From positions 1,025,805-1,089,804 of the forward strand of contig JBAXHT010000001.1 in assembly GCA_037138755.1 (NCBI GenBank): a stretch of 64,000 nucleotides of DNA, in the 5' to 3' direction. The DNA is from Armatimonadota bacterium. Lineage in GTDB: Bacteria > Armatimonadota > Fimbriimonadia > Fimbriimonadales > Fimbriimonadaceae. Shown here in pieces: positions 39,544 to 41,138 of the stretch. Below the pieces are notes generated by a model. That model made no database searches and was not told where the DNA came from. It saw only the letters and a program-made list of their open reading frames with translations. The first letter of the stretch is position 1, and every line of letters starts with the position of its first letter. Made by a program: the position numbers and the translations under genes.

Positions 39544-39678
39544 GGTTCCGATTGCTTGACTTAGATTATGACGTATGGCGGGCAGAGATCATTCCGGCAG
39601 AGAGGTCGTCTCGCGAATTCAGCCTTCGGAATCTGCGAGTTTATTCAGCTGACTCGCGACGACCTCAGTTGTCAGAAC

Positions 39679-40995
39679 TCAAAGTGAGTCGCTCTTTGCG
39701 ATATTGCAGGCTCTACAAAGTAATTGCAGATTGGCTTCGCTTGTCGCACCGCCAAGGCTGAAAGGGATGACATGGTCAAACTCCAAGTACTGCGACGAGC
39801 CACACTGGACACATACCCCGCGGTCTCTCTGCCAAACCGCAGCCTTAACATGTTGAGGAATGGCACGAGAATCCGCTTGCGTCAAAACCACCTGTCGATT
39901 GTGCCGCTGAAGCACGGCGTGTATGATTCTCCCACTAATTGGAGCATCCGCTAAAAAATATCGACCGGAGCCAGCTCGTTTGGTTAGCGACAAGATCAAT
40001 GTGGTACCACTTTCCACTTGGACGGTGGCAACTTTCGACAGCGAGGATTCGAACGGACGTGTGGTGTCAATTAGTGCGATGCGCCTATTGGTGACGACCA
40101 AGTTCCCTGCGACCCCACCTCGTTCCGTCTCGAACAAAACCGGCTCCGAGATGTGAGCAAACTCGCCTGGCGACAACATCATGTGTGTCTGAATAGTTGG
40201 AATCCTGCCTTCTGAGAGTTCCCGGCTAACGTGATAGTAACTCCATTGTTGAGCAAATCGCTCAAACAGTGTTTTATCAATATCGATGAAATCCAAGAGA
40301 GCAAAGAACTTTTCTTCCTCAGCCTCGGATAGATAATGGTCTGAAACCGAACAGGTCCATAATTGACCGGCGAGACTCAAAAGTGTTGTCTCGGATCCTC
40401 TAAGCAGGGTTGGCAAGTCAACCCCCAATAGTCGAGACTGTTCCGTACAAAAATCGAAGAAGACTGGCAGTTCAGAAACACCTAAAGCAAAGCGTCTCGA
40501 TAGTTCCTTCGAAAATCTTTCACACTTCGGAAAAAGATCCGATTCGCACTTTCTACACAAGCCACGCATTCTCGCTGACTTTGCATGTTGACCAATCAGG
40601 ACGAACTGGGAGGTGCACCGGTAGCAATGCAGACCGTTCGGCTGCAAAATCCGGGGCGGGACACTCGATTGAACAACATCGGAGCTGAAGTGCAGTGTCG
40701 TGTTGCCGACCCGGATGACCGACTTTGCACATGCTGGCTGACTCTGACCCTTTGGGATCGCTTTGCCATTACGTTGGGTCCCATTCGTGGAGTTTAAGTC
40801 AGTGACAACGATTCCGCCCTTTTTGGAAATCTGCAGGTGCCACCCTGAAACCAACGGATCCCGAGCAAGCGCTAGGCTATTGCCAGCATTTCGCCCAATG
40901 GTAATCGGCAAGGACGCTAGTTTTAGAGCCTGGCCGGCACAGGGCCCGTCAACTGCGTAAACAGAAAAAGTTTCTCCATTCTTGACTATTGCCAC
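39679..40995 (-). CDS. FHA / zinc-ribbon / PH-like / HNH nuclease protein (438 aa)
   Basis: Four parts can be seen. Residues about 30-105 are an FHA domain (ITIGRNAGNS, Ser50, DLNSTNGT at 66-73), which binds phosphothreonine. C124-C127 and C147-C150 form a zinc ribbon. Residues about 220-260 are helical and TerB-like, and about 278-365 resemble a bacterial PH domain (NLVVTNRRIALID). The C-terminus is an HNH nuclease: Cys395/398, Asp407-His408, Asn422, Cys427/430-Asn431. No signal peptide, so cytoplasmic. The combination suggests a nuclease steered by a phosphorylation signal, perhaps in stress or phage response. No kinase is nearby. Domain calls for the middle are tentative. Confidence 0.8.
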   Translation of the reverse strand: MAIVKNGETFSVYAVDGPCAGQALKLASLPITIGRNAGNSLALARDPLVSGWHLQISKKGGIVVTDLNSTNGTQRNGKAIPKGQSQPACAKSVIRVGNTTLHFSSDVVQSSVPPRILQPNGLHCYRCTSQFVLIGQHAKSARMRGLCRKCESDLFPKCERFSKELSRRFALGVSELPVFFDFCTEQSRLLGVDLPTLLRGSETTLLSLAGQLWTCSVSDHYLSEAEEEKFFALLDFIDIDKTLFERFAQQWSYYHVSRELSEGRIPTIQTHMMLSPGEFAHISEPVLFETERGGVAGNLVVTNRRIALIDTTRPFESSLSKVATVQVESGTTLILSLTKRAGSGRYFLADAPISGRIIHAVLQRHNRQVVLTQADSRAIPQHVKAAVWQRDRGVCVQCGSSQYLEFDHVIPFSLGGATSEANLQLLCRACNIAKSDSL

Positions 40996-41100
40996 TTAAC
41001 TCCTCGGCCTCTTTTAGCCGTACTTGTCTGATTCTATTCCAGGAAAGTGTTGTTATAGGTAGCAAAACTCAGCCAAATGCACAGGAGCGGCGACTAAACA

Positions 41101-41138
41101 CAAGAATCCCTCCTCAGTACACTGAGAAGGGATTCTTG
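41101..41138 (-). terminator. Terminator after dockerin protein gene
   Basis: CAAGAATCCCT and AAGGGATTCTTG flank CTCAGT/ACTGAG, giving a nearly perfect long stem; on the minus strand it is followed by TGTTTAG. It starts 12 bp after the gene's stop and faces the FHA-HNH gene's upstream region. Confidence 0.75.

What the first reader, a model, noticed from the sequence alone, without database searches (positions are those of the whole stretch)
39679..40995. FHA-zinc ribbon-PH-like-HNH protein: a nuclease with a phosphopeptide sensor
Seen: FHA motifs (GR34-35, Ser50, STNGT), two CxxC pairs, a PH-like stretch and a full HNH motif with zinc-binding Cys pairs in one 438-aa cytoplasmic protein. FHA domains bind phosphothreonine; HNH domains cut DNA. 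I know of no standard family with this order. Inference: nuclease held in check or recruited by a Ser/Thr kinase, fitting a defence or DNA-damage role.
Basis: partly seen in the sequence, partly recalled or inferred. Interest (0 to 1): 0.65.

Follow-up and report, generated by a model that had tools for sequence, protein, structure and literature searches.

The report
Phosphothreonine-sensor version of a TerD-type nuclease
This bacterial gene encodes a probable DNA-cutting enzyme that carries a phosphothreonine-binding (FHA) domain where its closest known relatives, found in bacteria with a tellurite-type (Ter) stress system, carry a TerD domain; it looks like an accessory, probably anti-phage, nuclease rewired to protein-kinase signalling.

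Summary
The 438-aa ORF has an FHA domain (Pfam E 2.8e-11), a CxxC...CxxC zinc ribbon, a PH-like domain and an intact HNH nuclease (E 1.7e-11). Homologs show an ancient core, (ZnR)-TerB-PH-HNH, with changeable N-termini: TerD (Deinococcus, Nocardia, one relative in the same phylum, prophages), extra TerB repeats (Planctomycetota), nothing, or FHA (only this genome and one other in the family). The Deinococcus TerD form is probably DRA0057, noted in the literature as an endonuclease fused to TerDEXZ; in D. radiophilus it lies inside a Ter operon. Genomes with the TerD form hold 12-21 TerD matches; carriers of the other forms hold none. Catalytic residues are invariant. The gene is missing from the same site in a close relative, is AT-rich and patchily distributed; relatives lie inside prophage tail modules and beside a methylase-Z1 helicase pair. 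Best reading: an accessory DNase, probably anti-phage, whose Ter-signal sensor was exchanged for a phosphothreonine sensor. Nuclease activity, phosphopeptide binding and defence are inferred. No kinase is linked to the FHA forms. New variant of a known kind.

The parts
39679..40995 (-). whole gene, 438 aa, FHA-zinc ribbon-TerB-like-PH-like-HNH
   Evidence: full-length homolog with the same order in G077 (L032:1102-2484, 36% identity)
41000..41004 (-). Shine-Dalgarno AGGAG upstream of the GTG start
   Evidence: sequence
40681..40968 (-). FHA domain (residues 10-105); likely phosphothreonine contacts R35, S50, T70, N71
   Evidence: Pfam; model and Foldseek; residue check
40546..40626 (-). zinc ribbon, C124/C127...C147/C150
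   Evidence: aligned in FHA and TerD relatives
40210..40503 (-). TerB-like helical domain (residues 165-262) with the D219...E226-E227 motif
   Evidence: Pfam TerB in homologs (L074 6.8e-15, L047 3.3e-6); family profile finds PDB 2ou3 TerB-like protein; profile-profile comparison 93%
39877..40170 (-). PH-like domain (residues 276-373)
   Evidence: model pLDDT mostly 90-95; PH-superfamily fold matches
39682..39867 (-). HNH nuclease domain (residues 377-438): C395/C398, D407-H408, N422, C427/C430, N431, K434
   Evidence: Pfam; invariant in 14 homologs; matches to McrA, Cas9/IscB and Cap5 HNH
39595..41127 (.). segment missing (replaced by about 200 unrelated bases) at the same place in the close relative G001; approximate edges

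Best explanation
A stand-alone accessory DNA nuclease belonging to a dispersed (ZnR)-TerB-PH-HNH family that works as an effector in stress or phage conflict. In the commonest ZnR-bearing form a TerD domain tunes the nuclease to the Ter stress system. Here an FHA domain sits in that place, in a lineage whose sampled carriers have no TerD at all. Proposed mechanism: a Ser/Thr kinase phosphorylates a partner (or a loop or neighbouring copy of the protein itself) during infection or stress; the FHA domain docks on the phosphothreonine; this recruits or clusters the protein, with the TerB and PH-like domains acting as regulatory or docking modules; the HNH domain then cuts DNA. Shown here: architecture, conserved active site, sensor difference between sister clades, its match with presence or absence of TerD, recent gain or loss at this locus, prophage carriage of relatives. 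Inferred: phosphothreonine binding, DNA cutting, kinase control, anti-phage purpose.
For: FHA and HNH above curated cut-offs with intact binding and catalytic residues. Same order in a second genus, G077. TerD forms on the same core: G101, Nocardia, Deinococcus, prophages. D. radiophilus form lies in a cluster with TerD genes, a vWA protein, ATP-grasp and phosphoribosyltransferase genes and a DUF475 gene. TerD matches: 12-21 in four genomes with the TerD form, 0 in eleven genomes with other forms (Fisher p 0.0007; species not independent). Tree: FHA clade (with sensorless G162) 91/93 and TerD clade 90/96. Gene absent at the syntenic site in a relative with 95% identical SecA; GC3 0.517 against a median near 0.63. 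Found in 4 of 291 genomes of the phylum. Relatives between prophage tail genes and beside a Z1 helicase and cytosine methylase. Kinase domains are present in the genome.
Against: No activity is shown. No kinase, phosphatase or defence gene lies next to either FHA form; the neighbours are housekeeping genes. Most chromosomal relatives also sit alone among unrelated genes. Only two FHA forms are known, and in the second the Asn of STNGT is Ser. PADLOC gives only weak HNH matches.
Confidence: 0.5

Rival explanations
1. A DNA-damage or repair nuclease: kinase signalling after damage recruits the FHA domain, and the HNH domain trims or processes DNA ends for the cell's own benefit.
For: FHA domains serve DNA-damage signalling in eukaryotes (Rad53, MDC1 and RNF8 FHA folds are among the fold matches); the TerD form occurs in D. 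radiodurans and D. radiophilus, and TerB/TerZ genes are listed among radiation-response candidates (PMC1978522).
Against: Patchy distribution and single-gene presence/absence, prophage tail-module positions and a methylase/helicase neighbour fit conflict better than core repair. DRA0057 was reported missing from D. rubellus Ant6 (PMC10614293).
Confidence: 0.2
2. A restriction-like nuclease that recognises modified or foreign DNA directly (McrA-like); the FHA and TerD parts only set oligomeric state or location, and no signal is needed.
For: The HNH domain matches McrA and Type IV/II restriction models weakly; in L119 a sensorless member sits by a C5 methylase and a Z1 helicase; sensorless members exist (G162, G493, L118, L119).
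Against: No DNA-modification reader domain was found; the TerD/FHA difference, matched to absence of TerD from the genome, points to signal input.
Confidence: 0.15
3. A selfish or homing-type HNH gene, or a decaying chance fusion with no cellular role.
For: HNH genes are often selfish; phages carry many similar small HNH genes; the gene is mobile on an evolutionary scale.
Against: Not in an intron or intein; four other domains are kept at about 30-40% identity over large distances with an invariant active site; full architecture kept in two genera.
Confidence: 0.1

Closest known systems
DRA0057 of Deinococcus radiodurans, a TerDEXZ/CABP-endonuclease fusion (PMC10614293, citing Makarova 2001); probably the gene at L112:7092-8723
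   Same: Same core order ZnR-TerB-PH-HNH, about 36% identity over the core
   Different: N-terminal TerD instead of FHA; in D. radiophilus in a Ter cluster, whereas the window's genome has no TerD. The locus-tag identification is from gene order and is not confirmed by a tag in the record.
Ter stress-response systems (TerB/TerD; Anantharaman et al. 2012, known from memory, text not held)
   Same: TerB-like domain in the protein; TerD relatives join Ter clusters
   Different: No TerD gene found in the genomes with the FHA form
McrA/Cap5/IscB-type HNH nucleases
   Same: HNH fold and motif
   Different: No SRA-like, SAVED or guide-RNA part found; Cap5 reads a cyclic nucleotide, here a phosphothreonine sensor is proposed
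FHA effectors and scaffolds (FhaA/FhaB, OdhI/GarA, DgcB)
   Same: FHA fold with phosphothreonine contacts
   Different: None of those carries an HNH nuclease (general knowledge)

Membership tests
FHA domain proteins | FHA fold with Arg, Ser, Thr/Asn phosphothreonine contacts | tested here: met
   Pfam 2.8e-11; Foldseek TMt about 0.8-0.9; R35, S50, T70, N71 present
FHA domain proteins | binds phosphothreonine peptide | not testable with these tools
   needs a binding assay
HNH nucleases (PF01844) | DH...N...CxxCN motif with two zinc CxxC pairs | tested here: met
HNH nucleases (PF01844) | metal-dependent DNA cutting | not testable with these tools
   needs an assay
TerD-ZnR-TerB-PH-HNH nucleases (DRA0057-like) | ZnR-TerB-PH-HNH core | tested here: met
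   core tblastn to Deinococcus, 37-39% identity, best E 9e-40; alignments
TerD-ZnR-TerB-PH-HNH nucleases (DRA0057-like) | N-terminal TerD domain | tested here: not met
   FHA instead
Ter system component | TerD genes in the genome or operon | tested here: not met
   no TerD in G000, G077 or G162; other Ter genes not searched
TerB domain | TerB sequence/fold | tested here: inconclusive
   window protein alone gives no Pfam TerB hit; homologs and profiles do; structure search did not list TerB among the top 50
Known anti-phage systems (PADLOC-DB) | whole-protein match to a defence model | tested here: not met
   only weak HNH-limited matches

The most novel reading that the evidence does not exclude
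A phosphorylation-gated DNA nuclease for phage defence in which a bacterial Ser/Thr kinase signal, read by an FHA domain, replaces the Ter signal as trigger; the (ZnR)-TerB-PH-HNH core is a general effector chassis onto which bacteria and prophages plug different alarm sensors.
Probability: 0.3. Interest if true: 0.75.

Novelty: new variant of a known kind. Interest (0 to 1): 0.5.

Why it matters
The biochemical output of the widespread Ter system is unsettled. A family in which one nuclease core carries either TerD or a sensor of known logic (FHA) suggests that TerD acts as an input domain controlling DNA cutting, and it offers a testable pair: same nuclease, two sensors. It would also give a simple example of kinase-gated DNA defence in bacteria.

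Tried and rejected
Search of viral contigs with the single protein found nothing; the family alignment then found prophage members. Defence-gene neighbourhood of the window: none seen, neighbours are SecA, PEP-CTERM-like proteins and an MFS transporter (read from the translations). Conserved neighbourhood across homologs: none beyond two members beside an ion channel gene and one beside a kinase gene. PADLOC and NCBIfam membership: no whole-protein match. TerB by structure search: not in the top 50, PH folds dominate. Further FHA forms: none among 150 HNH-like ORFs in the fetched loci, which is a motif scan of a limited, partly redundant set. Literature searches for DRA0057 and FHA-HNH found no functional study; the 2012 Ter paper is not held. 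A first guess that the D. radiodurans gene was DRA0282 was dropped on gene order.

Full report
Observation. The ORF 39679-40995 on the minus strand encodes 438 aa from a GTG start with a good Shine-Dalgarno. Pfam finds FHA (residues 31-97, E 2.8e-11) and HNH (395-436, E 1.7e-11), both above their curated cut-offs. Four cysteines (124, 127, 147, 150) form a zinc-ribbon pattern. An AlphaFold model with 14 sequences (mean pLDDT 80.4, pTM 0.51) puts residues 10-105 in an FHA fold (target TM about 0.8-0.9 to FhaA, OdhI, GarA and DgcB). A second model of the part after the FHA domain (pLDDT 85.7) shows a helical domain, a PH-like barrel (Vps36 TMt 0.57, talin F3 0.66) and the HNH helix-strand elements. 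Domain placement relative to one another is not well defined (pTM 0.5-0.6).

The missed domain. The helical middle carries the D219...E226-E227 pattern of TerB-like repeats. The window protein alone gives no Pfam TerB match, but homologs do (L074 6.8e-15, L047 3.3e-6, L077 2.9e-6), the family profile finds the TerB-like PDB entry 2ou3 (2.5e-4), and profile-profile comparison with a set of TerB sequences gives 93% probability. That set includes TerB repeats of family members themselves; against one stand-alone TerB sequence the probability is only 9%. I call it TerB-like, not proven TerB.

Family. In the held set of the window's phylum (291 genomes) only four genomes encode the core: this one (FHA), G077 in another genus of the family (FHA, same full order, 36% identity), G162 (no sensor) and G101 in another family (TerD). 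Outside the phylum: Nocardia and allies with TerD-DUF2510-ZnR-TerB-PH-HNH, Planctomycetota with TerB repeats before PH-HNH, Deinococcus radiodurans and D. radiophilus with TerD, and prophage or phage contigs with TerD or no sensor. The C395/C398, D407-H408, N422, C427/C430, N431 and K434 positions are invariant across 14 diverse proteins, so the nuclease is under selection.

Sensor difference. FHA and TerD forms share the zinc ribbon and everything after it; TerB-repeat forms lack the ribbon. On a tree of the core, FHA forms plus sensorless G162 form one group (91/93) and TerD forms another (90/96), sisters when rooted on the TerB-repeat forms; several branches are long and the root split is weak (63/77). 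The direction of the exchange is not established. TerD matches number 12-21 in the four whole genomes with the TerD form and zero in eleven genomes with other forms, including the two FHA carriers; the fusion proteins themselves count among the matches, and the species are not independent. In D. radiophilus the TerD form stands in a Ter gene cluster: ATP-grasp, phosphoribosyltransferase, HAD, AIM24 and StiP genes on one side, TerD, vWA, TerD, TerD and DUF475 on the other. In Deinococcus sp. QL22 a stand-alone terB is found beside TerD-TerD-vWA-TerD, so the fusion may fill the terB place; that is a comparison of two clusters only.

Accessory behaviour. In the close relative G001 (SecA 95% identical) the order MFS, small gene, PEP-CTERM-like, large PEP-CTERM-like, secA is the same but the FHA-HNH gene is missing; about 200 unrelated bases stand in its place. 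The gene has GC3 0.517, second lowest of 40 window genes compared (composition profile). This fits gain by transfer, but loss in G001 is not excluded. Prophage relatives sit in tail modules: in L120 the TerD form is on the opposite strand, with an anti-repressor and a tape-measure gene on one side and tail genes on the other; L122 and L123 lie near lysozyme, baseplate and anti-repressor genes. In L119 a sensorless form lies next to a Z1-domain helicase (PADLOC Type II helicase, 4.7e-86) and a C5 cytosine methylase. These are positions in which phage-borne and cellular defence genes are often found (general knowledge), but they are not proof of defence.

Kinase link. Three kinase-domain matches exist in the window's genome and three in G077, none near the gene. 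One Nocardia-type TerD form has a protein kinase gene next door (L105), a single case. So the kinase step is inferred from the FHA domain alone. In the G077 protein the Asn of STNGT is Ser, which may weaken or alter binding.

Known and new. The TerD form of D. radiodurans, DRA0057, was listed as an endonuclease fused to the TerDEXZ/CABP family (PMC10614293, citing Makarova 2001). I equate it with the gene at L112 from gene order near bphP, which rests on memory of the locus tags. A 2020-21 jumbo-phage survey proposes that phages use Ter parts against superinfecting phages (PMC7824862). I found no description of an FHA form, in a library that lacks most subscription papers, including the 2012 Ter analysis. 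I therefore rate it a new variant of a known kind.

Noticed in passing
L106:8518-9324 and L107:10814-11560: Two TerB-repeat PH-HNH genes of the Planctomycetota search (G660, G504) each have an ion channel gene (Ion_trans) as nearest downstream neighbour; possibly a functional pair.
   Followed up: partly
L105:7836-9863: A Ser/Thr protein kinase gene lies directly next to a TerD-form nuclease in G315.
   Followed up: no
L119:4935-9389: Sensorless ZnR-TerB-PH-HNH gene, Z1 helicase and C5 methylase side by side in a phage-like contig; may be a restriction-like cassette.
   Followed up: partly
L049 (L064) and L062: Nocardia crassostreae holds two copies of the TerD form, one intact and one broken by a frameshift in the record.
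   Followed up: no
L098:6880-7100 (G001): The site that holds the FHA-HNH gene in the window holds an unrelated short stretch in G001; the site may be an accessory slot.
   Followed up: no
L109:10253-11758: Another TerB-containing protein is encoded right after a TerB-repeat PH-HNH gene in G674.
   Followed up: no
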